Virus record (IMG/VR): IMGVR_UViG_3300036852_000741
Coordinates: 1 to 64,000 of that record
DNA: 64,000 nt
Source of the DNA: a virus
Strand: one strand, 5' to 3'
Position numbers and translations under genes: made by a program
Notes under the pieces: model-generated
Told to the model about the DNA's origin: nothing
What the model saw: only the letters and a program-made list of their open reading frames with translations
Database searches by the model: none
Shown here: piece after piece, positions 3,447 to 63,324 of the stretch
Position numbering within the stretch: the stretch's first letter is position 1
Layout of the letters: each line of letters begins with the position of its first letter

Positions 3447-4595
3447 CTACGCCGCAGCGTCTGCCCACGGTCCCCATGCGGCTTCTAGCTGCTTGAGCGG
3501 AACGCGCGTCGCATCCGTGCTTGCTCTTGGTGCGGGCGCATCCATGGCTTCCAGAAAGCGATCGCACTCGTCGCGCAGGTTGGCCACGCTGGCGCGAACC
3601 CGCTCACGCATCGCGTCTGGCACTTCGGTAGCGATCGGAACTGTCACGCGAAACGAAGTGGCGTACTCGCGCGAGACGATCGCCAGGCGACGGAAGAAGG
3701 CCATCGCGCTCCACGCCTGTGCGTCGCGCTCCTGCACGCGCTTGCGCTCCGCCTGCTCGTTCTCCCAGCGCTCCATCTTCTGCGCCTCCGCGTAGGTCGT
3801 GGACGGCGAGCCCAGCAGTCGCTCGCGGACCGTCGGACTGGCCCGGTCCAGGAACTCCAGGACTTCAGGGAAGCCACCGCCGCCGGGGACCTTGCCGCTG
3901 AGCGCCTTCCGGCCAAGCGCTACCTGCTCGTTCTCGGACAGGCCGGAGCCGGTGAGCGCCGCTCCCACGTTGAGGTCGAGCCTGTGCTCCAGCAGCAGGG
4001 TCTGCACTCCCGGGGCTGCGTTCTTGACGATGCGTACCGAGCGGTCGGCGTGCTGACCGCCGGGTGCCGGGTTGCTCTTGTCGGCGAAGCGCCTGGCCAT
4101 CTTCTTCTTGGTCTCGGGGGGCATGTTGGCTTTGGCGAGTGCGCGGGCGTCCTCGCGCCCGATTTCTCCGTTCTCCGCCATGTCGGCCACCTCGTCGGGC
4201 AGGTTGAGCATCGCCATGAGGCTGGTGATCGTCGCCTCCGTCGTCCCCACGTAGGCGGCGAGTATGGCGTGGCCGACCTTGCCGTCGCTGGACTCGGCGC
4301 GCAGCATCTCGCGCAGGTCGCGCAGCGCCCGCGCCTTGGCCATCGGCGTGAGGTGGGACTTGGCCATCTCGTCCGACAGCCTCAACGCCAACGCCCCCAC
4401 CTCGGTGGCCTGGATGACGTGTGGCGTGACCTCCAGGCCGAGGCGTTCGGCGGCCTGCCGGCGGCCCTCTCCCAGGACGACCTCGCCGCTGGGCAGGGTG
4501 ACGACCGGCTGGGCGAGGCCGAAGCGCCGGATGGACTCGATCAGGTCGGGGGACGGCTCTGGGCGTGGCAGATGCCGTGGGGGCTTGAGGGGCAT
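3447..4595 (-). CDS. ParB-like nuclease/partition-domain protein, 382 aa
   Basis: Contains a ParB N-terminal-like domain (about residues 14-100): the helix DLIESIRRFGLAQPVV, a loop SGEVVLGEGRRQAAERLGL matching the ParB GERR box, and a helical HTH-like region GTTEATITSLMAMLNLP around 125. The C-terminal half is helical and charged. In phages such proteins act as DNA-binding or CTP-binding factors, sometimes nucleases; partition of a plasmid prophage is also possible, but no ParA was seen. The ATG has a strong GGAGG site eight bases upstream. Confidence 0.75.
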   Translation of the reverse strand: MPLKPPRHLPRPEPSPDLIESIRRFGLAQPVVTLPSGEVVLGEGRRQAAERLGLEVTPHVIQATEVGALALRLSDEMAKSHLTPMAKARALRDLREMLRAESSDGKVGHAILAAYVGTTEATITSLMAMLNLPDEVADMAENGEIGREDARALAKANMPPETKKKMARRFADKSNPAPGGQHADRSVRIVKNAAPGVQTLLLEHRLDLNVGAALTGSGLSENEQVALGRKALSGKVPGGGGFPEVLEFLDRASPTVRERLLGSPSTTYAEAQKMERWENEQAERKRVQERDAQAWSAMAFFRRLAIVSREYATSFRVTVPIATEVPDAMRERVRASVANLRDECDRFLEAMDAPAPRASTDATRVPLKQLEAAWGPWADAAA

Positions 4596-4616: not shown

Positions 4617-4652
4617 GGGGGGGAAACCCCGCGATCGCGCGATTTCCCCCCC
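4617..4652. promoter_or_regulatory. 10-bp stem-loop between two minus-strand genes
   Basis: GGGGGGGAAA at 4617-4626 pairs perfectly with TTTCCCCCCC at 4643-4652. The 16-base loop holds GCGATCGCGC. It lies between the stop of the 203-aa gene and the ParB-like gene. There is no T-run on either side, so an attenuator, mRNA-stability element or protein site is as likely as a terminator. Confidence 0.45.
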
Positions 4653-10146: not shown

Positions 10147-11388
10147 TCACGCCGCCCGTTGGAACGTGACGCGCGTCGGGATCAGCACGACCTCGACGCC
10201 GCCCAACTCACCGTTGCGGTTCTTGGCGATGTAGACCTTGCCGGACTCCTCCGGCGTGCCGTCACTGCCCTGCTCGCGGTGGACGAACGTCACGATGTCC
10301 GCGTCGTTCTTGAGCATCCCCGAGCCCCGGATGTCGCCCAGCGTCGGCGCCGGGCGCGTCTGGCCGGACACCCGGTTCTCGTTGAGATGGATGGTCGCGA
10401 TCACCCCGCAGTTGCAGGTCGACTCCTTGCACATCTGGTTGATCGTGCGGCTGATCGCCGCCAGGTCGCGCTCCTCGCGGTGCTCGATGAGGTGCAGGAT
10501 GTCGATGCCCACCACGTCCCAGTGATGCCAGCGGGCGTGGCGCATGATGTCCTCCGCCGTCCAGCCGGCGCAGTCGGTGATCCCGAACGGGATTTTGTTG
10601 GCCGCCTGAGAGGCTAGGTGAAGCTGCCCGCTCGTCAGCCGGCGTCGCCGGATCAGCGACAACGCAACGCCGGAGTGCCGGGCGAGCATCCGGTCGACGC
10701 GCGCCGCCGTGCTCATCTCGTTGATGTAGAGGTGCACCTTGGCGCCCTCCGCTGCAATGCCTTCCAGGGTCTGGTCTAGCAGTGCCGACTTGCCGAAGCT
10801 CGACCAGCCGCCCAGCAGCATCACCTCGCCGCGCCGCAGCCCACCGGCGCACGCCGTGACCAACTCGGCGAACGGCAAGGTGAACGTCTCCTCCTCGCCG
10901 CTGGTCAGCCGCTCCAGCGCCTGGTCGGCCAGCATCTCCGGCGTCAAGGTGCGCTCCGAGTCGTCGCTCTGCGGGGTGAGCAGTGCCTCGGCCTGCGCCA
11001 CCTTCGCCATGTCCTGGCCGTCGGCGGCTTCGACCAGGAGCAGCCCCGCCGTGCGCCGCGTCCGCCAGTGCGCCAGGTCCATCACGTGGCGCGCGTAGTC
11101 GAGCACCGCCGACACCGCCGGGGCGTACGCCGCCATCCTGTCCACGTGGTTGGGCTCCAGGTCGGTGATCGCGCCGACGGTCACCGGCGTGATCGCCTTG
11201 CCCTGCAACGCCAGGTCGAGCATCGCCCGGTACGCCTTCCGGGGGACCTCGATGCCGAAGTGCTCGGGCCGCAGCCCGACGATCGTCTGCAACGGCCGCA
11301 GGTGCGCATCGCTGAGCATCACCGCACCGACGATGCCGTACTCCGCCTCGGCGTCAAACAGCTTGCCCGAGTCGTACAGGCCGCCCAT
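10147..11388 (-). CDS. dnaB: DnaB-like replicative helicase, 413 aa
   Basis: Replicative hexameric helicase that unwinds the fork. The N-terminal domain (residues 1-100) has the DnaB opening FDAEAEYGIVGAVMLSD. The C-terminal RecA-fold domain has a Walker A variant GGWSSFGKSALLDQ near residue 200, a Walker B strand VVGIDILHL near 288, and the late motif RGSGMLKNDADIVTFVHRE. The Walker A is atypical (GGWSSFGKS rather than GxxxxGKT). ATG overlaps the initiator stop as TGATG. No primase was found in the window. Confidence 0.9.
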   Translation of the reverse strand: MGGLYDSGKLFDAEAEYGIVGAVMLSDAHLRPLQTIVGLRPEHFGIEVPRKAYRAMLDLALQGKAITPVTVGAITDLEPNHVDRMAAYAPAVSAVLDYARHVMDLAHWRTRRTAGLLLVEAADGQDMAKVAQAEALLTPQSDDSERTLTPEMLADQALERLTSGEEETFTLPFAELVTACAGGLRRGEVMLLGGWSSFGKSALLDQTLEGIAAEGAKVHLYINEMSTAARVDRMLARHSGVALSLIRRRRLTSGQLHLASQAANKIPFGITDCAGWTAEDIMRHARWHHWDVVGIDILHLIEHREERDLAAISRTINQMCKESTCNCGVIATIHLNENRVSGQTRPAPTLGDIRGSGMLKNDADIVTFVHREQGSDGTPEESGKVYIAKNRNGELGGVEVVLIPTRVTFQRAA

Positions 11389-12359
11389 CACGCCGCGACG
11401 AGGCCGAGGCGACGCAGCCGACTTGCCATCTCCTCTGCCTGCGCACGCCCCTCGGGCGTCGCCATCAGCCGCTGGTACTCCTCCTCGACCTCGCGGCACG
11501 CCTGTGCCTTCTCGGCCTCGATCTTGCGGTGGTACTCCGCCATCTGCGCGTCGCTGCGGCGCCTCTCGGCGTGCTGGTCGATGGCGGCGCTACGGACGCC
11601 GCGGGCCGCATCCCAGCCCTCCTGCTTCTCCATCCATCGCGAGAAGTGCGCCTGCAAGTCGACCTTGCGCCTGAACCGCCCCTCCTCGTTGGAGAGGTAG
11701 CTCGTCAGCCGCCGCGCCACGTAGACGGCATCGACGGCGGGATGTGTCGTGATCGCTCTGGAGACGGAGCGCCGTGACGGTGGTGCCCAGCGCTTCTTGC
11801 GAGCGAGGTCGGCGAGGACCGTGTAGGCCGGGTGGTCGCCACCGAGGTCCATCTCCTCCTGGGTGGGTGCGCACGCCTCGCGCGCGCTACCCCCCGTAAG
11901 GGGGGTTTCTTCTTTCTTTCCTCTCTTACACGCGAGGGACGTGTCTTCCTGGACGACACGTTGTGTCTTCCTGGACGACACGTTGATCGGTCGCTGGGCG
12001 TTGGACGTGTCTTCTGAGACGACACGTTGGGGCTCATCGAGGACGGTGTAGACGTTGCTCTTGCCGTCGCGCTCAACGAGCACCACGCCGGCTTCAACGA
12101 GCGCCTGGAGGTAGCGGACGGTGCAGTCGCGAGACATGCCGCAGCGCTCGGCGAGGGCGCTCTGGAGGCAGGTGAACGGTCCGCGGCCGGCTTCGTTGCG
12201 AAGCTCGGTGAGGGCCTGGTAGAGCCCGAGGCCGACGACGCGCTGGAGCCTCTTGCCGGAAGGCTCCTCGCGGCCGTCGAAGCGCGCGCGGATCGCGGTG
12301 GTGCTGGGGATGGTCTGGTAGGAGAAGGGGGCGGGGATGTGGCGGATCGTGTCCGTCAT
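11388..12359 (-). CDS. Replication initiator-like wHTH protein, 323 aa
   Basis: Likely origin-binding and helicase-loading factor, by analogy to lambda O/P-type initiators. The N-terminal third is a winged helix (FTCLQSALAERCGMSRDCTV, then YLQALVEAGVVLVERDGKSN). The middle carries peptides QRVVSEDTS, NVSSRKT and QRVVQEDTS encoded by three phased iterons. The C-terminal part is helical and charged (AERRRSDAQMAEYHRKIEAE), suited to binding DnaB encoded directly downstream. The start overlaps the upstream stop as ATGA. Iterons inside the initiator gene strongly suggest the replication origin is here. Confidence 0.75.
   Translation of the reverse strand: MTDTIRHIPAPFSYQTIPSTTAIRARFDGREEPSGKRLQRVVGLGLYQALTELRNEAGRGPFTCLQSALAERCGMSRDCTVRYLQALVEAGVVLVERDGKSNVYTVLDEPQRVVSEDTSNAQRPINVSSRKTQRVVQEDTSLACKRGKKEETPLTGGSAREACAPTQEEMDLGGDHPAYTVLADLARKKRWAPPSRRSVSRAITTHPAVDAVYVARRLTSYLSNEEGRFRRKVDLQAHFSRWMEKQEGWDAARGVRSAAIDQHAERRRSDAQMAEYHRKIEAEKAQACREVEEEYQRLMATPEGRAQAEEMASRLRRLGLVAA
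11939..12030. repeat. Three phased iterons inside the initiator gene; candidate origin
   Basis: Units starting at 11941, 11963 and 12007 share GTGTCTTCCTGGACGACAC or a close variant, followed by GTTG. They are spaced 22 and 44 bases, all multiples of 22, about two helical turns. Units one and three also have dyad arms ACGTGTC...GACACGT. Because 22 is not a multiple of three, the middle copy is read in another frame, so the DNA rather than the protein is conserved. A pyrimidine tract (11903-11930) lies beside them. Confidence 0.75.
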
Positions 12360-12640
12360 CGCTGTGACCGGAAGTCGCTGAGGTCGAGAACGACACGTGG
12401 GGCGGGGATTGAGCGGTCGACATGGAGATGGCAACGCTGCTGGGCGTATCGCTGGGCGGCGGCATCGTCCACGGCGCCGTTCTCCCAGCGGAACTCCTGG
12501 CTGTAGGAGACGGCGTTCCGGCAGCGCCTTCCGCTACGCGCCGTGGCGCTGCACTGCGGATGGATCGCCGCGATGCTCGGCGCCGGAATGACGATGGCCG
12601 CGTCGGAGCCCCATGCCGCCGGCCCATCCTGTACGCTCAT
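12356..12640 (-). CDS. Cys/His zinc-binding protein, 94 aa
   Basis: Probable small zinc-binding protein. The pattern HPQCSATARSGRRCRNAV, then QQRCHLH, resembles phage proteins where a CxxT...GxxC pair and a late C-x-H bind zinc. Function unknown. CTGACAAGGAGG on the minus strand before the ATG is a variant of the start-associated sequence. It precedes the initiator by a 4-base overlap, so it is the first gene of the replication operon. Confidence 0.7.
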   Translation of the reverse strand: MSVQDGPAAWGSDAAIVIPAPSIAAIHPQCSATARSGRRCRNAVSYSQEFRWENGAVDDAAAQRYAQQRCHLHVDRSIPAPRVVLDLSDFRSQR

Positions 12641-16071: not shown

Positions 16072-16094
16072 ATGGTAGCACACATCGTGAGCTA
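16072..16094 (-). promoter_or_regulatory. Dyad promoter with a 250-base leader
   Basis: Minus-strand TAGCTCACGATGTGTGCTA (16076-16094) overlaps -10 TACCAT (16072-16077). The start-associated sequence of the gene it drives lies about 250 bases downstream, unlike the 10-60 bases seen elsewhere. The leader (15830-16070) is GC-rich with several possible hairpins and no convincing gene. Confidence 0.8.
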
Positions 16095-17666: not shown

Positions 17667-18233
17667 CTACCAGCCCATCGCCTGACAGATTGCTGCGGCG
17701 ACCGGCCCCGGCATCGTGTAGTAGGGCTGGCCGGTCACCGTGCGGCCCCGGCGGTAGGGGACGGATGTGCGGCGCCGCGCGAAGTAGCGCGAGGACGGGC
17801 CGAGCCCGAGGCGGCTCTCCGAGCCGATCCCCAGGTGTGTCCGTAGCGCCTCGGCCAGAACCTGCTGGTCGGGGTGCTGCGCCAGGTGGCGCAGGAACTC
17901 CTTGTACATGTCGCTGCGCTCGGGCAGGTGGCGCTCGGCGTGTTCCGGGCGCGTCCACTTTGTGGAGATGCCGTGGAGCGCGCGCGACGGCGCTCCCGGC
18001 TCGGAGGCCGCGACGACGCTCTCGGTCTCCTCGTGCTCGGCGTTCGCCAGCGCGACGAAGGGGTTGGACGAGCCGAGGATGATGTCCTCCGCGCGCGGGG
18101 TGGGGGCGCCTGTCCCCGGCTCGGACACGGCGACCTCTCCGTTGGAAAAGTGCACGAGGTCCGCAAGCTCGCGCACGGCGGTCATTACGTCGGCAGGCGC
18201 GTCGCCCTGGACGCTGATGGTGATATTGGGCAT
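17667..18233 (-). CDS. Winged-helix-like protein, 188 aa (paralogue of 9657-10094)
   Basis: The C-terminal half contains FLRHLAQHPDQQVLAEALRT then HLGIGSESRLGLGPSSRYFA, basic RRR, and YTMPGPVAAAICQAMGW, paralleling the 145-aa protein at 9.7 kb. The N-terminal half is distinct: PNITISVQGDAPADVMTAVR and an acidic linker. It has its own consensus promoter and an AGAGGGA ribosome site. Candidate regulator; the two copies may have different targets. Confidence 0.7.
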   Translation of the reverse strand: MPNITISVQGDAPADVMTAVRELADLVHFSNGEVAVSEPGTGAPTPRAEDIILGSSNPFVALANAEHEETESVVAASEPGAPSRALHGISTKWTRPEHAERHLPERSDMYKEFLRHLAQHPDQQVLAEALRTHLGIGSESRLGLGPSSRYFARRRTSVPYRRGRTVTGQPYYTMPGPVAAAICQAMGW

Positions 18234-18274
18234 CCTGTTCCCTCTGTTTGTTGGGGATAAACCTTGACCTGGCG

Positions 18275-18304
18275 AGTCTAGGGCGCCAGATGGCGATGTG
18301 TCAA
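18275..18304 (-). promoter_or_regulatory. Consensus -35/-10 promoter
   Basis: Minus-strand TTGACA (18299-18304), 18-base spacer, TAGACT (18275-18280), upstream of the 188-aa wHTH-like gene. The dyad cassette is absent here. Confidence 0.7.
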
Positions 18305-18324
18305 GAATCCCGCGAGGTGGATGC

Positions 18325-18420
18325 GCGTTCTAACCTATTCTAATTGTTATCAGGGGTGAGTCAGATGGGTTGTAGCCATAGAAATAAGGACAGTCAGTTA
18401 CGCCGGTTCAATAAACGAGT
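18325..18420. other. AT-rich island
   Basis: A roughly 95-base stretch much richer in A and T than its surroundings, including TTCTAACCTATTCTAATTGT and ATAGAAATAAGGACAG. No gene or clear inverted repeat was seen. It lies upstream of the consensus promoter and beyond the terminator of the next minus-strand gene; an attachment site, UP-element or imported segment are possible readings. Confidence 0.5.
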
Positions 18421-24377: not shown

Positions 24378-24613
24378 TGGCCGACAAGTGCCGGCGCTGT
24401 GCTGCGCCGATCCGGTGGGGCAAGACCGCCAAGGGGCGCCGGATGCCCCTCGATGCCGAGCCGAACCCGGAGGGCAACGTCGTGATGCTGGACGAGTTCG
24501 GCAACGTCCGGGTGCTCAAGAAGGACGAGGAGCCGCCGCGCGGGGTCGCGAGGTGGATGCCGCATTGGGCAAGCTGTCCGCACGCCGAGGCGTTCCGCAA
24601 CGCCCCACACTAG
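24377..24613 (+). CDS. Zinc-ribbon phage protein, 78 aa
   Basis: Opening MADKCRRCAAPIRWGKTAKG with C-x-x-C, and a late SCPHAEAF, is the usual pattern of a small zinc-ribbon family found in actinophages (CRRC..P......G..MPLD). Function unknown. Its TAG stop is the first three bases of the next dyad operator. Confidence 0.75.
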   Translation: MADKCRRCAAPIRWGKTAKGRRMPLDAEPNPEGNVVMLDEFGNVRVLKKDEEPPRGVARWMPHWASCPHAEAFRNAPH

Positions 24614-24633
24614 CTCACATCGTGTGCTAAGCT
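24611..24633 (+). promoter_or_regulatory. Dyad promoter overlapping a stop codon
   Basis: TAGCTCACATCGTGTGCTA with -10 TAAGCT (24628-24633). Its first TAG is the upstream stop codon. GACCGACCAAGGGGG follows. Confidence 0.85.
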
Positions 24634-30426: not shown

Positions 30427-30475
30427 TAGCTCACATCGTGTGCTATCATCCTGCCTGGTGCGGCGGTAACGCCGC
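30427..30475 (+). promoter_or_regulatory. Dyad promoter with GNRA-loop leader hairpin
   Basis: TAGCTCACATCGTGTGCTA, -10 TATCAT (30444-30449), then hairpin GCGGCG-GTAA-CGCCGC (30460-30475) and ATCCCGACCAAGGAGG. First of the accessory-region operons. Confidence 0.9.
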
Positions 30476-30631: not shown

Positions 30632-30834
30632 TGTGGAGCTTCCACAAGCCTGGCCCTGACGGGTGGCGCCGGAGTCTCGGCTACCGCACGCGGCGCACTC
30701 AGTACGGCAACTACGAGCTACAGCGGTGGACTGGTGCCCCCGATTGGGAGCACATCGGCTTCGCTCGGACCTACGGTCAGGTGCGTGCGATGGCCAGCGG
30801 GGACGCCGCGAGGCGCGAGGCTGGCCGCCGATAG
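30631..30834 (+). CDS. Hypothetical protein, 67 aa
   Basis: Unknown, rich in Trp/Tyr/Arg (SFHKPGPDGWRRSLGYRTRR). Its TAG stop doubles as the start of the next operator. Confidence 0.7.
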   Translation: MWSFHKPGPDGWRRSLGYRTRRTQYGNYELQRWTGAPDWEHIGFARTYGQVRAMASGDAARREAGRR

Positions 30835-30874
30835 CTCACGATGTGTGCTACCATGTAGGTGGGTCGAGAGACCC
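30832..30874 (+). promoter_or_regulatory. Dyad promoter with GAGA-loop hairpin
   Basis: TAGCTCACGATGTGTGCTA overlapping TACCAT (30849-30854), hairpin GGGTC-GAGA-GACCC (30861-30874), then TTCCCGACCAAGGAGG. Confidence 0.9.
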
Positions 30875-32258: not shown

Positions 32259-32491
32259 GCGGGCGGGAGGGGCTGGGCGCCCTGATGGATCAGCGGATGC
32301 AGTGGCTGCGCGTTGCCGCCGTCGAGAACGAGTACGGCACGTGGGACGTGGTGCTCCGGCTCGACGGCTCCTACGCCGAGGCGGGCGACGCCGAGGGGAT
32401 GCTCACCTACTGGCGCGACCAGGTGATGGCCGCGCTCGATGCGGACGGCCTGGATGTCCGGCGACTTCTGCGGGGAGACTGGACCCAGTAG
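32255..32491 (+). CDS. Hypothetical protein, 78 aa
   Basis: Unknown, alpha/beta, with ENEYGTWDVVLRLDGSYAEA. ATGA overlap with the previous gene. Stop TAG is part of the next operator. Confidence 0.7.
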   Translation: MSGREGLGALMDQRMQWLRVAAVENEYGTWDVVLRLDGSYAEAGDAEGMLTYWRDQVMAALDADGLDVRRLLRGDWTQ

Positions 32492-32533
32492 CTCACGATG
32501 TGTGCTACCATTGGGGTGCGGTCAGAGGGCCGC
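32489..32533 (+). promoter_or_regulatory. Dyad promoter with leader hairpin
   Basis: TAGCTCACGATGTGTGCTA, TACCAT (32506-32511), hairpin GCGGTC-AGAG-GGCCGC (32518-32533), then ACCCGACCAAGGAGG. Confidence 0.9.
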
Positions 32534-34022: not shown

Positions 34023-34201
34023 AGACCGCGACGTACGTGATCGACTACGCGGCGAAGGGGCAGCCGGGCGTGCAGCCGCGAAGGCTCCACCGCCTGGACT
34101 GCCCCCACTTCTATCCGGGCACGCCGACGAGGCCGGCGACGCCGTTGGAGCGCCAGGCGCTGCCGACGTGCTTCGACTGCGCGATCAACGCCTGGCGGTA
34201 G
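34019..34201 (+). CDS. Hypothetical Cys/His protein, 60 aa
   Basis: RRLHRLDCPHFYPGTP then LPTCFDCAINAW forms a likely zinc site (C-x-H, CxxC). GTG overlaps the previous stop as GTGA; stop TAG starts the next operator. Confidence 0.7.
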   Translation: MKTATYVIDYAAKGQPGVQPRRLHRLDCPHFYPGTPTRPATPLERQALPTCFDCAINAWR

Positions 34202-34252
34202 CTCACATCGTGTGCTACACTGGGTGTGGCCTACAACGTTTGCGGGCCACAC
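34199..34252 (+). promoter_or_regulatory. Dyad promoter with 8-bp leader hairpin
   Basis: TAGCTCACATCGTGTGCTA, TACACT (34216-34221), hairpin GTGTGGCC/GGCCACAC (34224-34252). The ribosome site is GAGGGGGAGGACC; the usual CCCGACCAAGG word is altered to CACCGAGGGGGAGG. Confidence 0.85.
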
Positions 34253-35267: not shown

Positions 35268-35290
35268 TAGCTCACATCGTGTGCTACCGT
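35268..35290 (+). promoter_or_regulatory. Dyad promoter
   Basis: TAGCTCACATCGTGTGCTA overlapping TACCGT (35285-35290), a weak hairpin CGGTCC/GGATCG in the leader, then ATCCCGACCAAGGAG. Confidence 0.85.
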
Positions 35291-35846: not shown

Positions 35847-35900
35847 GACGCGAGCGCTCGCCTGATCGGCGGGCGCTGGCGCCGGGTCGCGTGGCTCGGA
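35847..35900 (+). promoter_or_regulatory. Second copy of the block at 25853-25903
   Basis: GACGCGAGCG, then GCGCTGGCGCCGGGTC and GTGG, in the same order as before the lipoprotein gene. A CTCGAAGGGGG ribosome site follows. No dyad present. Confidence 0.5.
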
Positions 35901-35927
35901 ACCATCACCTCGAAGGGGGACACTCAC

Positions 35928-36422
35928 ATGCAGTTCAAGCAGATCATGGTGCTGGCCGCAGTAGCCAGCATCGCCGGGACCGGCACGGCTGTTGCCGGCT
36001 CGGCCTACGTCACGGGGCGCGACATCAAGAACGGCACCGTGACGGGCAGGGACATCAAGGATCGCTCACTCAGCCCGCGCGATTTCAACGGTTCCGTCCA
36101 GGGACCGCAGGGAGCCCAGGGAGTCCAGGGAGCCCAGGGAGCCCAGGGACCGGCGGGGGCCGCAGGTTCCCAGGGTCCGGCGGGCAGCTTCTCGGACATC
36201 CAGCGCATCACGCAGACGCAGAGCGTGGCGCCCGGCCAGGCGGTCACCATCGTCGCCCAGTGCTCCGCCGGATACAAGGTCGTTGGCGGCGGCTTCTACA
36301 GCGCCAACATCACCTTCGCCAGCGACTCGTTTGGCACCACGACGGCGTGGAAGGTGATCGCTGGCAACCCGAGCAGCACCACCAGCTACGACGCGACCGC
36401 TATCGCGTACTGCGTCCGATGA
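35928..36422 (+). CDS. Secreted collagen-like protein, 164 aa
   Basis: Signal peptide MQFKQIMVLAAVASIAGTGT with a likely site at AVAG-S. Then YVTGRDIKNGTVTGRDIKDR, a repeat common in secreted actinobacterial proteins, followed by short collagen-type triplets (QGPQGAQGVQGAQGAQGPAG) and a C-terminal beta domain with two Cys (VAQCSAGYKVVGGGFY, IAYCVR). Likely exported from the host or displayed on the surface. The triplet stretch is short, so a trimeric stalk is possible but not proven. Confidence 0.8.
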   Translation: MQFKQIMVLAAVASIAGTGTAVAGSAYVTGRDIKNGTVTGRDIKDRSLSPRDFNGSVQGPQGAQGVQGAQGAQGPAGAAGSQGPAGSFSDIQRITQTQSVAPGQAVTIVAQCSAGYKVVGGGFYSANITFASDSFGTTTAWKVIAGNPSSTTSYDATAIAYCVR

Positions 36423-36610
36423 GGCGCCCGGCGATGACTCGGGCGGTCCTCGCGAGCATGGCTGTGGTCCTGCTCGCGACGGGCCTCGCCCTTCCCGAGA
36501 GCGGCGGCAAGATGAAGCCGCTGCTTGAGAGGCACGGCAACATCGGGGCCATCGGATGCGTCCACTTGGCGCCCGACCATGCCGGACCCACGTGGCCGAG
36601 ATGTCCTTGA
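36419..36610 (+). CDS. Tandem copy 1: short exported-type protein, 63 aa
   Basis: Signal-like helix (ASMAVVLLATGLALPE) then GGKMKPLLERHGN. Its first 41 residues closely parallel those of the next gene, including DNA sequence, but the C-terminal part differs (ending TWPRCP). It looks like a duplicated, probably decaying copy. ATGA overlap with the collagen-like gene. Confidence 0.6.
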   Translation: MRRPAMTRAVLASMAVVLLATGLALPESGGKMKPLLERHGNIGAIGCVHLAPDHAGPTWPRCP

Positions 36611-37860: not shown

Positions 37861-37904
37861 TAGCTCACGATGTGTGCTATCCTTGGGGTGGTGCTGAGAG
37901 GCAC
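37861..37904 (+). promoter_or_regulatory. Dyad promoter with GAGA-loop hairpin
   Basis: TAGCTCACGATGTGTGCTA, TATCCT (37878-37883), hairpin GTGCT-GAGA-GGCAC (37891-37904), then TTCCCGACCAAGGAGG. Confidence 0.9.
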
Positions 37905-38510: not shown

Positions 38511-38813
38511 ATGACGACCACGCTGAATGCCACCGAGCGTGGCGTGATGGACGCGCTGATCGCCTGGTGCGAGGCGAACCCTCGCAGCGCCGCGCGGATC
38601 GTCTGGGCGGATGGCCGTAGGCACACCGGCTACCTGACGGTGACCCGCCTCAGCGATGGGCGGGTCTCCGTGAGCGTGCGCAACTCCGATCGTCTGCACG
38701 GCCAGTATCGAACCGTGAGCGATTGGATGCTTGCGGGCGAGCAGTTGCAGATCAAGGTGGGCGCTCGCTATCGCCCTGCCCCGGAGGTCATTCTAGCTCA
38801 CGATGTGTGCTAA
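38511..38813 (+). CDS. Hypothetical protein, 100 aa, ends inside an operator
   Basis: Unknown alpha/beta protein (GVMDALIAWCEANPRSAARI, HTGYLTVTRLSDGRVSVSVR). The last residues LAHDVC and the TAA stop are encoded by the next dyad operator, so the operator sequence is translated here. The start-associated sequence precedes its ATG although no dyad lies upstream. Confidence 0.75.
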   Translation: MTTTLNATERGVMDALIAWCEANPRSAARIVWADGRRHTGYLTVTRLSDGRVSVSVRNSDRLHGQYRTVSDWMLAGEQLQIKVGARYRPAPEVILAHDVC

Positions 38814-60373: not shown

Positions 60374-63304
60374 GTGACCCAGCCTGGCGCAGAGGAGCTT
60401 GTCGTGGGACGGGTCGATCCGTTCGTCGCTTTGCGGGGGCGGATCGAGGAGGCCAGCAACGGGGGCAAGGATGCTGGCGAGCGGGCGCTGGCGCTCAAGC
60501 GGGTGCGCTACGGCCTGCTGGCGGCACTGAGGGACGTGGAGGGCCGCATCGAGGAGGCCGAGGGCGACCGCGAGCGCGAGGTGCGTCGCGAGGTGCTGCG
60601 CCGGGTGCGTGAGAACGCCGACCTGCGCGAGCAACTGGAGCGCCGGGGGCTGGTGGCGCCGGAGCGCTTGGACGCGATGGGGCTGGTCTCCCATGACGCG
60701 CTCGATGAGGCCGGGGTCGAGGGGCGCCTGGAGGAGTTCGCGGCCGGCGCCCTGGCGAAGCTCGACAACATCGGGCAGGGCTCTGGCGTGTTGGGCAAGT
60801 GGCTGGAGAAACTGCACCCGCGCGATCGCGGGGGCCAGTTTGCGAAGAAGCCCGGCTCGGGGGTGATGACGGCTCACGTGGGCCCGGACGCCGGTGGCAG
60901 GGGGACGGTGAAGCGTACGGTCAAGGCACCGGCCGCCAAGCGGCCCGAGCGGGTGTTCAAGACGCAGAAGGTCATGCCCGAGGAGCTTGTGGCTCAGCAG
61001 AAGACGCCCGAGCAGAAGGACGTGCCGGAGGCCGAGCGTGTCGGGTTCGAGGGCCTGGCCCCGGGTGCTCGCCCGGCCGGGATGAGCGAGCGGCAGTGGC
61101 GCCAGGAGCGTGCTCGTACCCCGGAGGGGGCTCGTCGGACCAAGGGGCCGGTGCAGGCGCCCGAGGAGATTGAGAAGGCCAAGGCCAAGGACCGCGAGAA
61201 GCGCCAGCGGGGAATGGCCAAGCGTGTCGAGCGCGAGGTGGCCAAGGGCGTCAAGGGCGGGGCCGCCCAGCACTTCAATCCGGCCGGCAAGGTCAGCCAG
61301 AAGGCGCTGTTGGACTACGTGCGCAACACGCTGACCACGCCGTCAACGGCCGATGCGCACTCCGAGGTGCGCGGCGAGCAGCGCTTCTATCACCCCGACC
61401 GCAAGCAGCTTCACGACACGATTATCGACACGTTGCTGCGGCGCCCCAACGAGGACGGCACCATCTCGGCGTCCAACGAGTACCTGCCCTCCCAGGAGAC
61501 GCCGGAGGTCCTGTTCATGGGCGGCGGCTATGCGGCGGGCAAGTCGAGCGCGGAGAAGTTGCTGCGGGCCCGCAACGAGGTGCCGGCGGACTCGCTGAAG
61601 ATCGACCCCGACCAGATCAAGTCGATGCTGCCCGAGTTCGTGGCGACGGCCGGCCACGACCCGGAGGCCAACCTGCGCGTCTACGAGGAGGCGTGGGACA
61701 TCGCCCAGGAGCTTCAGCGTCAGGCCAAGGAGCGCAAGCTCAACGTGGTGGTGGACGGCATCACCAACACCTCGGCCGACGAGGTGTTCGGTCGGGTGCA
61801 GAGCTTCAAGGACGCCGGCTACGGCAACGCGCGGATCGCCTACGTGGATGTGCCCACCGACGTGGCGCTCACCCGGGCCGCCGACCGGATGGCCAAGGCG
61901 ATCGAGCGTGGCGACGGGCCGAACATGCGCCACATCCCCGAGCCGATCATGCGCGCTGTGCACCGCGACGTGGCGGCGACGATTCCGGCAGTGATGGGCG
62001 ACCCCCGCCGCGAGGGCCTGGGGGTGCATGTGGACGTGTACGACGGCCAGTCGGGGGCGCTGCCGATCGCCTCGATCGCCCCCGACGCCGCCGAGCCGAC
62101 GATCCACAACGACCCGGCGTGGGCGCGGCTGCGCGAGAAGGCCGACGAGAAGATCGCCGGGGTGGACGCGGCCAAGAGCGCCACCGACCCGTGGGCTGCC
62201 GGGCGCCTGGCGGAGAACCACGAGGACTTCTTCAACGTGACGCCGCAGACGACGCGGGTGTCGCTGGACAAGCTGCGCCCGTCCAAGCAGCCCGAGAGCC
62301 AGCCCAAGTCGGTGGACAACGCCGAGCGGTTCATGCGTCAGGCGGCGGCCGGCGAGAAGGGCAAGCGCGACCCGATCAGGGTGCGCGACGATGGCGATGG
62401 GACCTACACCGTGCTCGACGGCAACGCCACCTACGGGGCGGCGGTGCGCAACGACTGGAAGGACCTCCCCGTCGAGGTGGTCAACGCCAAGCCCGGCGGC
62501 GAGACCACGGGCGGAGCGGCGGTGCGGCCCGGCGATGACGAGGCCCGAGCCGTGCACCAGCGGATCGTGGAGTCTGTCGGCGATGTGCCCGCGGAGGCGC
62601 CTCCTCAGCCGGCCAGCACCGAGGAGGAGTTGTATGCGCTGGCGCCTGCCGCCCAGGAGGGCTTCGTTGACATCCTGGACCGCGGTGTGGGCGTCTCAGC
62701 GTCGTTGGGGGCGCGTACTCACCAGATCACGAACGAGGACGACTTCAAGGAGGCGGTGGCCGCGGTCGAGGCCGACCCCGACAGCCCGCACATCCTCCTG
62801 GCGCCGTTGAAGGGCACCGAGCGTGCGCGCGAGAAGGTCGAGGGCAAGTACAAGGGCGACTGGGGCAAGCTCTCCGATGTTGTGCGCGGGACGGTCGTGG
62901 TGCCGGACATCGAGACGCTTGAACAGGCGATGGACGCGGTACGCCGGGAGGCGGAGGCCAACGGCTGGAAGGTCAGCGCCCTGGAGAACCGGATGGTCAA
63001 CATCCAGGGCGAGGGCAAGCGTGCGCCGGGGCCGACCTCCTCGGGCTACACGGACTTCAACATCCGCCTGGAGGCGCCCAACGGCATCCAGGCTGAGCTT
63101 CAGTTCAACACCTCGCACATGGTGATCGCCAAGGAGGGCACGCCAGGCGGCCACAAGCTGTTTGAGGAGGAGCGCACGATTGTGGATCGGGCGAACGCGA
63201 GGGGACTCCCGCTCACCGCCGCGGAGCGCGCCAGGGTGTTCGAGCTTCGCAAGCAGCAGACGGCGATCTACACCCAGGCATGGGAGGCCGGCATCCCATC
63301 GTAG
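60374..63304 (+). CDS. Polyvalent protein: zeta-toxin-like kinase, ParB-like and RelA/SpoT-like domains, 976 aa
   Basis: N-terminal helical part, then linker LHPRDRGGQFAKKPG (about 150-165) as in injected MuF-fused proteins. Zeta-like kinase (about 320-540): Walker A GGGYAAGKSS near 382, KIDPDQIKSMLPEF, VVDGITNTSADEVFG and ADRMAKAIERGDGP. ParB-like domain (about 610-700): RVSLDKLRPSKQ and TVLDGNATYGAAVRN. RelA/SpoT-like domain (about 810-935): LKGTERAREKVEGKYKGDWG, KLSDVVRGTVVV, GYTDFNIRLEAPNGIQAELQ. Zeta kinases phosphorylate UDP-sugars and RelA-like enzymes make (p)ppGpp or modify RNA, so the protein might halt host growth after injection. Domain calls are by motif only. Confidence 0.8.
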   Translation: MTQPGAEELVVGRVDPFVALRGRIEEASNGGKDAGERALALKRVRYGLLAALRDVEGRIEEAEGDREREVRREVLRRVRENADLREQLERRGLVAPERLDAMGLVSHDALDEAGVEGRLEEFAAGALAKLDNIGQGSGVLGKWLEKLHPRDRGGQFAKKPGSGVMTAHVGPDAGGRGTVKRTVKAPAAKRPERVFKTQKVMPEELVAQQKTPEQKDVPEAERVGFEGLAPGARPAGMSERQWRQERARTPEGARRTKGPVQAPEEIEKAKAKDREKRQRGMAKRVEREVAKGVKGGAAQHFNPAGKVSQKALLDYVRNTLTTPSTADAHSEVRGEQRFYHPDRKQLHDTIIDTLLRRPNEDGTISASNEYLPSQETPEVLFMGGGYAAGKSSAEKLLRARNEVPADSLKIDPDQIKSMLPEFVATAGHDPEANLRVYEEAWDIAQELQRQAKERKLNVVVDGITNTSADEVFGRVQSFKDAGYGNARIAYVDVPTDVALTRAADRMAKAIERGDGPNMRHIPEPIMRAVHRDVAATIPAVMGDPRREGLGVHVDVYDGQSGALPIASIAPDAAEPTIHNDPAWARLREKADEKIAGVDAAKSATDPWAAGRLAENHEDFFNVTPQTTRVSLDKLRPSKQPESQPKSVDNAERFMRQAAAGEKGKRDPIRVRDDGDGTYTVLDGNATYGAAVRNDWKDLPVEVVNAKPGGETTGGAAVRPGDDEARAVHQRIVESVGDVPAEAPPQPASTEEELYALAPAAQEGFVDILDRGVGVSASLGARTHQITNEDDFKEAVAAVEADPDSPHILLAPLKGTERAREKVEGKYKGDWGKLSDVVRGTVVVPDIETLEQAMDAVRREAEANGWKVSALENRMVNIQGEGKRAPGPTSSGYTDFNIRLEAPNGIQAELQFNTSHMVIAKEGTPGGHKLFEEERTIVDRANARGLPLTAAERARVFELRKQQTAIYTQAWEAGIPS

Positions 63305-63324
63305 CTCACGATGTGTGCTATCAT
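63302..63324 (+). promoter_or_regulatory. Dyad promoter
   Basis: TAGCTCACGATGTGTGCTA, first TAG being the stop of the polyvalent gene, with TATCAT (63319-63324). GGAGGTGATGCC gives the ribosome site; the CCCGACCAAGG word is absent. Confidence 0.85.

What the first reader, a model, noticed from the sequence alone, without database searches (positions are those of the whole stretch)
11939..12030. Helically phased iterons hidden in the initiator gene mark a likely origin
Three near-identical words start at 11941, 11963 and 12007, all on a 22-base grid. Because 22 is not divisible by three, the middle copy is read in another frame (NVSSRKT versus QRVVSEDTS), so DNA identity is what is conserved. 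The layout parallels lambda, where the origin iterons lie within the O gene.
Basis: partly seen in the sequence, partly recalled or inferred. Interest (0 to 1): 0.66.

Follow-up and report, generated by a model that had tools for sequence, protein, structure and literature searches.

The report
P22-type replication origin inside initiator gene
An otherwise unknown 105-kb bacterial virus appears to hide its DNA replication start site inside the gene for the protein that starts replication, as phages lambda and P22 do; a new member of a known kind, whose comparison also turned up a GC-run DNA element that recurs at the same spot in many phage initiator genes.

Summary
Three near-identical words start at 11941, 11963 and 12007 on a 22-bp grid, with none expected by chance. 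Each is a 21-23 bp imperfect palindrome (ACGTGTC-N9-GACACGT). Two of the three bases by which copy 3 differs are a symmetric pair that keeps the palindrome; the third is the centre base.

The repeats lie at nt 333-421 of gene 11388-12359(-). It encodes a winged-helix protein weakly matching phage initiator families and sits next to a DnaB-like helicase gene. On the gene strand the repeats are followed by a 22-nt all-purine, 68% A+T tract (11906-11927) and the palindrome CCCCCCTTACGGGGGG (11890-11905). Phage P22 gene 18 has the same order at the same gene positions: its annotated origin spans nt 353-497 and ends in CCCCCTTACCCCCTAAAGGGGG. Lambda O has the same order with a different final palindrome.

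In 76 dnaB-linked loci, repeat arrays are strongly enriched just upstream of dnaB (16/76 versus 3/141 control windows). The GC-run element recurs in diverse initiator genes in all three reading frames, which points to selection on DNA.

Binding and origin activity are untested, and third-position GC skew gives no support.

The parts
11388..12359 (-). replication initiator gene, 323 aa: N-terminal winged HTH (aa about 36-106), disordered linker (aa 114-222, overlapping the origin-encoded stretch), C-terminal helical region
   Evidence: PHROG 270/186/678 replication initiation / DnaD-like / O-like, E 5e-5 to 4e-4; HTH_36 E 2e-4, below the gathering cut-off; AlphaFold pLDDT 80-88 over aa 41-110 and <50 over 114-222; best viral structure matches are phage HTH and initiator proteins, one named lambda GpO N-terminal
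12005..12027 (.). iteron copy 3, ACGTGTCTTCTGAGACGACACGT, gene nt 333-355
11961..11983 (.). iteron copy 2, left arm truncated where it abuts copy 1, gene nt 377-399
11939..11961 (.). iteron copy 1, ACGTGTCTTCCTGGACGACACGT, gene nt 399-421
11906..11927 (-). putative unwinding element: 22-nt all-purine tract on gene strand, AAGAGAGGAAAGAAAGAAGAAA, 68% A+T
   Evidence: sequence; the 200-nt window at 11898 is the second most AT-rich in the 105-kb record (0.42 vs mean 0.30), although coding
11890..11905 (.). C6/G6 palindrome, gene strand CCCCCCTTACGGGGGG, gene nt 455-470; short form of the P22 CCCCCTTACCCCCTAAAGGGGG element
   Evidence: only match to CCCCCYNNNRGGGGG in the window (0.06 expected)
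10147..11385 (-). DnaB-like replicative helicase gene, directly downstream of the initiator
   Evidence: PHROG 19 E 8e-51; DnaB_C E 5e-35
12390..12398 (-). extra half-site ACGTGTCGT about 31 nt before the initiator ATG; possible autoregulatory site, weak
   Evidence: 7 occurrences in the record, 3 of them the iterons

Best explanation
This is a lambda/P22-type intragenic theta-replication origin. Shown: palindromic iterons on a 22-bp grid, a purine/AT-rich tract and a C6/G6 inverted repeat follow one another inside the linker-coding part of a winged-helix initiator gene, next to a DnaB-like helicase gene. Inferred: the initiator binds the iterons as dimers, one per two helical turns, and wraps them into a nucleoprotein complex. 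Supercoiling then melts the adjacent AT-rich tract. The phage DnaB-like helicase is loaded on the opened strands, with the GC inverted repeat bounding the bubble or folding into a hairpin on the exposed strand.
For: Repeats far beyond chance. Dyad symmetry kept through a symmetric double change. Repeats read in two frames, so DNA is conserved. Initiator and helicase families. The origin-encoded residues (aa 111-157) fall in or at the start of the predicted disordered linker. Array at gene nt 333-421 followed by AT/purine tract and palindrome at 455-470; lambda O has iterons at nt 349-433 and P22 gene 18 its origin at 353-497 with the C/G element at 476-497. Iteron arrays in dnaB-linked upstream windows 16/76 vs 3/141 controls, Fisher p = 6e-6; many are dyads at about 22-bp pitch followed by AT-rich DNA. 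Published: lambda/Stx origins lie mid-O, each iteron is an inverted repeat, and two iterons plus the AT tract suffice for unwinding (PMC7466680); P22 and L carry different iterons in gene 18, and gene 12 is a DnaB-type helicase (PMC8022706).
Against: Only three iterons. The AT tract is short (22 nt). Family matches of the initiator are weak (E 5e-5 at best) and no close relative of the phage was found for phylogenetic footprinting. GC skew at third codon positions shows no switch at the site. Of the 16 panel arrays, L024 and L074 are low-complexity, and L068 and L078 are in-frame 30- or 24-nt repeats that could be protein repeats. No binding or replication data.
Confidence: 0.86

Rival explanations
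1. The palindromic repeats are operators: the winged-helix protein, or a phage repressor, binds them to control the operon, with no role in starting replication.
For: Winged-helix dimers bind such dyads; an extra half-site lies about 31 nt before the start codon; the phage uses another dispersed 19-bp dyad at about 20 sites, probably regulatory.
Against: The array lies 330-420 nt inside the gene, where an operator would be unusual, and is followed by an AT-rich tract and inverted repeat exactly as in P22 and lambda. No promoter-like site was found nearby.
Confidence: 0.07
2. The repeats are a centromere (parS-like) array bound by the ParB-like protein encoded at 3447-4595.
For: A ParB-like gene is present; parS sites are palindromic.
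Against: The half-site does not occur near the ParB-like gene; a different 36-nt palindrome lies just upstream of that gene.
Confidence: 0.03
3. A recent local tandem duplication without function, in a disordered linker that tolerates anything.
For: Copies 1 and 2 are identical and adjacent; the linker is predicted disordered.
Against: The copies are read in different frames, copy 3 diverges while keeping both 7-bp arms and the dyad, and flanking features match known origins.
Confidence: 0.04

Closest known systems
Salmonella phage P22 origin in gene 18, with gene 12 DnaB-type helicase
   Same: winged-helix/O-like initiator with about 20-bp iterons in mid-gene, AT-rich tract, then C-run/TTAC/G-run inverted repeat at nt 476-497; DnaB-type helicase gene directly downstream
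   Different: different iteron sequence; 3 rather than 4 copies; C6TTACG6 lacks the second C-run; 69-70% GC genome, 105 kb, with a terminase distantly related to SPO1/Listeria-phage types; protein similarity only at remote-profile level
Phage lambda ori in gene O, and the Stx-phage versions
   Same: palindromic iterons at nt 349-433 of O, purine-biased AT tract 3' of them, then an inverted repeat
   Different: lambda follows O with the loader P, not a helicase; 4 to 6 iterons; the inverted repeat is TTCGTCAGAGAATTCTGGCGAA
Uncultured-phage initiators with the C/G element (L021, L061, L080, L130) and Flavonifractor phage Cormatin
   Same: iteron-like dyads where present, AT tract, and C-run/G-run element at gene nt about 400-480
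   Different: most have two C-runs (C5-6 N2-6 C5-6 A-AAA G5-6); reading frame of the element varies

Membership tests
lambda/P22-type intragenic origin | initiator with N-terminal winged-helix DNA-binding domain | tested here: met
   (profile E-values weak, predicted fold clear)
lambda/P22-type intragenic origin | array of about 20-bp iterons in the middle of the initiator gene | tested here: met
lambda/P22-type intragenic origin | each iteron an inverted repeat | tested here: met
lambda/P22-type intragenic origin | AT-rich tract on the 3' side of the iterons | tested here: met
   short (22 nt, 68% AT, vs 30% genome mean)
lambda/P22-type intragenic origin | inverted repeat after the AT-rich tract | tested here: met
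lambda/P22-type intragenic origin | helicase or helicase-loader gene directly downstream | tested here: met
   DnaB-like, P22 type; lambda P type not seen
lambda/P22-type intragenic origin | sequence homology of the initiator to O/gp18 families | tested here: inconclusive
   phrog_678 O-like E 4e-4, phrog_270 E 5e-5; Pfam Phage_rep_O not matched
lambda/P22-type intragenic origin | initiator binds iterons; replication starts here | not testable with these tools
   needs biochemistry or replication mapping; GC skew uninformative
parS centromere array | ParB-binding palindromes at or near the parB locus | tested here: not met
   half-site absent from the 3.4-4.7 kb region
intrinsic transcription terminator (C6/G6 palindrome) | GC stem followed by a U-run | tested here: inconclusive
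   Terminator-like hit on the + strand, antisense to the gene, with mixed tail TTCTTCTTTC; other phages' elements have no T-run on that side, for example L104

The most novel reading that the evidence does not exclude
The C-run/G-run inverted repeat is a third, DNA-level conserved part of many phage intragenic origins. It sits just 3' of the AT/purine tract at gene nt about 400-530, and is kept in all three reading frames of otherwise dissimilar initiator genes (encoding PPxxPQGG, PPxPPKGG or TPPxPPRG), so it acts as DNA, for example as a hairpin that bounds the bubble or guides helicase loading, and is not a peptide motif.
Probability: 0.5. Interest if true: 0.6.

Novelty: new member of a known kind. 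Interest (0 to 1): 0.42.

Why it matters
It gives a testable origin and initiator-helicase cassette for a phage with no close isolate, and shows that the P22/lambda layout can be recognised across large sequence distance from DNA anatomy alone. The comparison suggests that the inverted repeat 3' of the AT tract, present in P22's annotated origin, recurs widely and is conserved as DNA. That makes its unknown role (bubble boundary, hairpin or helicase landing site) directly testable in P22.

Tried and rejected
Relatives: single-protein scans with the initiator, the helicase and the neighbouring 14-kb protein found no relative in viral contigs; the initiator also gave none in genome contigs, phages or plasmids, and the left 24 kb had no near DNA match in phages.

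GC skew: rejected as evidence, because it is confounded by gene strand.

The window's exact variant (purine tract + C6N4G6) in GTDB genomes: 23 hits, mostly low-complexity runs and none recognisable as an initiator, so the short form is not shown to be widespread. Stricter patterns found nothing.

Peptide-only reading of the GC element: disfavoured by its use in three frames. But the element is dispensable: epsilon15, phiPSA1 and Olaya lack it while BUCT711, in the same genus as epsilon15, has it.

Terminator reading: not general. Rfam: nothing in 9-16 kb.

Literature: no description of the GC-run element was found in the searches made, but the older P22 papers are not in the library.

Full report
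WHAT IS THERE. The window is part of a 105,351-base virus record. Three near-identical words start at 11941, 11963 and 12007; no shuffle of the window gave even one match. The grid is 22 bp with one empty slot. On the minus strand the copies are translated RVVSEDTS, NVSSRKT and RVVQEDTS, so a shared DNA word is read in two frames. Each copy is an imperfect palindrome, ACGTGTC-N9-GACACGT; copies 1 and 3 pair 9 of 10 positions around the axis, a level reached by only 16 odd-centred 21-mers in the record. Copy 3 differs from the others at the axis base and at one symmetric pair of positions (TCC/GGA to TCT/AGA), which keeps the palindrome. This is what sites for a dimeric protein look like.

THE GENE. 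The array lies in 11388-12359(-), 323 aa, starting ATG at 12359. It matches PHROG replication-initiation, DnaD-like and O-like families at E 5e-5 to 4e-4 and Pfam HTH_36 below the curated cut-off. AlphaFold, with a thin alignment, gives a winged helix at about aa 36-106 (pLDDT 80-88 over aa 41-110) and a disordered stretch at aa 114-222; the array and the two following elements encode aa 111-157, so they lie almost entirely in that linker. Best viral structural matches are phage helix-turn-helix and replication-initiator proteins, including one named lambda GpO N-terminal. The next gene, 10147-11385(-), is a DnaB-like helicase, and RecT-, RusA- and exonuclease-like genes are nearby.

THE LAYOUT. 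On the gene strand: iterons at nt 333-421, an all-purine AT-rich tract at nt 433-454 (11906-11927), and the palindrome CCCCCCTTACGGGGGG at nt 455-470 (11890-11905). The 200-nt window at 11898 is the second most AT-rich of the record although it is coding. Lambda O has annotated iterons at nt 349-433 of 900, then a purine-biased AT tract, then TTCGTCAGAGAATTCTGGCGAA. P22 gene 18 has its annotated origin at nt 353-497 of 816: repeats, AT-rich tract and, as its last 22 bases, CCCCCTTACCCCCTAAAGGGGG. The window's palindrome reads like the P22 element without its second C-run. Published work places lambda and Stx origins in mid-O with each iteron an inverted repeat, and two iterons plus the AT tract sufficient for unwinding (PMC7466680). 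It also notes that P22 and phage L carry different iterons within gene 18 and that gene 12 is DnaB-like (PMC8022706). The window is therefore closest to P22.

COMPARATIVE TEST. Eighty viral contigs were collected by DnaB similarity alone. In windows just upstream of dnaB, 16 of 76 carry an iteron-like array by a fixed score, against 3 of 141 control windows within or downstream of dnaB (Fisher p = 6e-6). Many arrays are dyads with 21-24 bp pitch followed by AT-rich DNA, for example L083, L042, L069 and L087. A few (L024, L074, L068, L078) are low-complexity or in-frame and should be discounted. In the same loci a C5+/G5+ inverted repeat occurs in 6 upstream windows (91 kb) against 4 places in 503 kb elsewhere. 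L028 and L034 are homologous, so the independent count is lower; one of the four elsewhere, L061, is itself a 363-aa ORF downstream of dnaB with the element at nt 455-476.

A RECURRING THIRD ELEMENT. A scan of viral contigs for CCCCCYNNNNCCCCCCAAGGGGGG gave 74 stretches, 65 distinct on de-duplication; 43 lie at least 250 nt inside a gene of at least 180 aa, in frames 0, 1 and 2 in 22, 10 and 11 cases. Of 20 frame-1 and frame-2 genes checked one by one, 18 match PHROG replication-initiation, primosomal, replisome-organizer or DnaD-like families; the whole set matches such families widely. The sequence before the element is AT-rich and purine-rich (mean 58% AT and 63% purine in the 45 nt upstream, over all hits, against a locus mean of 44% AT). 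Because the same DNA is kept in three frames at the same gene position, selection on DNA is the simplest reading. The element is not essential to the class: epsilon15, phiPSA1 and Olaya lack it. The window's short form was not found in other initiators, so its membership of this group rests on position and on similarity to P22.

MECHANISM. Shown: anatomy, gene identity at family level, comparative enrichment. Inferred: dimer binding, wrapping, melting of the AT tract, loading of the DnaB-like helicase, and any role of the inverted repeat.

RIVALS AND LIMITS. Operator, parS and neutral duplication readings are less likely (see rivals). GC skew does not help: the cumulative minimum at 11687 coincides with the switch of gene strand and is absent at third codon positions. 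No close relative of the phage was available for footprinting.

VERDICT. Observation confirmed; interpretation supported as a strong prediction; a new member of the P22/lambda intragenic-origin kind. The wider GC-run element is the part worth following up.

Noticed in passing
16076-16094, 24611-24629, 30427-30445, 30832-30850, 32489-32507, 34199-34217, 35268-35286, 37861-37879, 38794-38812, 63302-63320 and about 10 weaker sites in the 105-kb record: Dispersed 19-bp palindrome TAGCWCACATCGTGWGCTA, ten perfect copies to the degenerate pattern (none expected by chance). Those read lie shortly before an RBS-like GGAGG or an ATG, so it may be an operator or promoter family used genome-wide.
   Followed up: partly
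4617-4652: 36-nt near-perfect palindrome (GGGGGGGAAACCCCGCGA/TCGCGCGATTTCCCCCCC) immediately upstream of the ParB-like gene 3447-4595(-); possible parS or operator.
   Followed up: no
L096-L169 (IMG/VR), P22 gene 18 nt 476-497 (L199), BUCT711, Cormatin, MT835558: C-run/G-run inverted repeat directly 3' of an AT/purine tract in phage initiator genes, in all three reading frames.
   Followed up: partly
L061:5367-6455: A 363-aa ORF downstream of dnaB carries the same AT tract plus C6TTC6AAAG5 element at nt 455-476, so the order of initiator and helicase genes may be swapped there.
   Followed up: no
18208-18420: Most AT-rich stretch of the whole record (up to 63% AT per 60 nt against a 30% mean), near 18.3 kb, upstream of ORF 18344; possible control region or alternative origin.
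   Followed up: no
36096-36149: In-frame 9/27-nt tandem repeat reading GSPGSPGSPGSPG, a collagen-like stretch in the + strand ORF 35891-36610.
   Followed up: no
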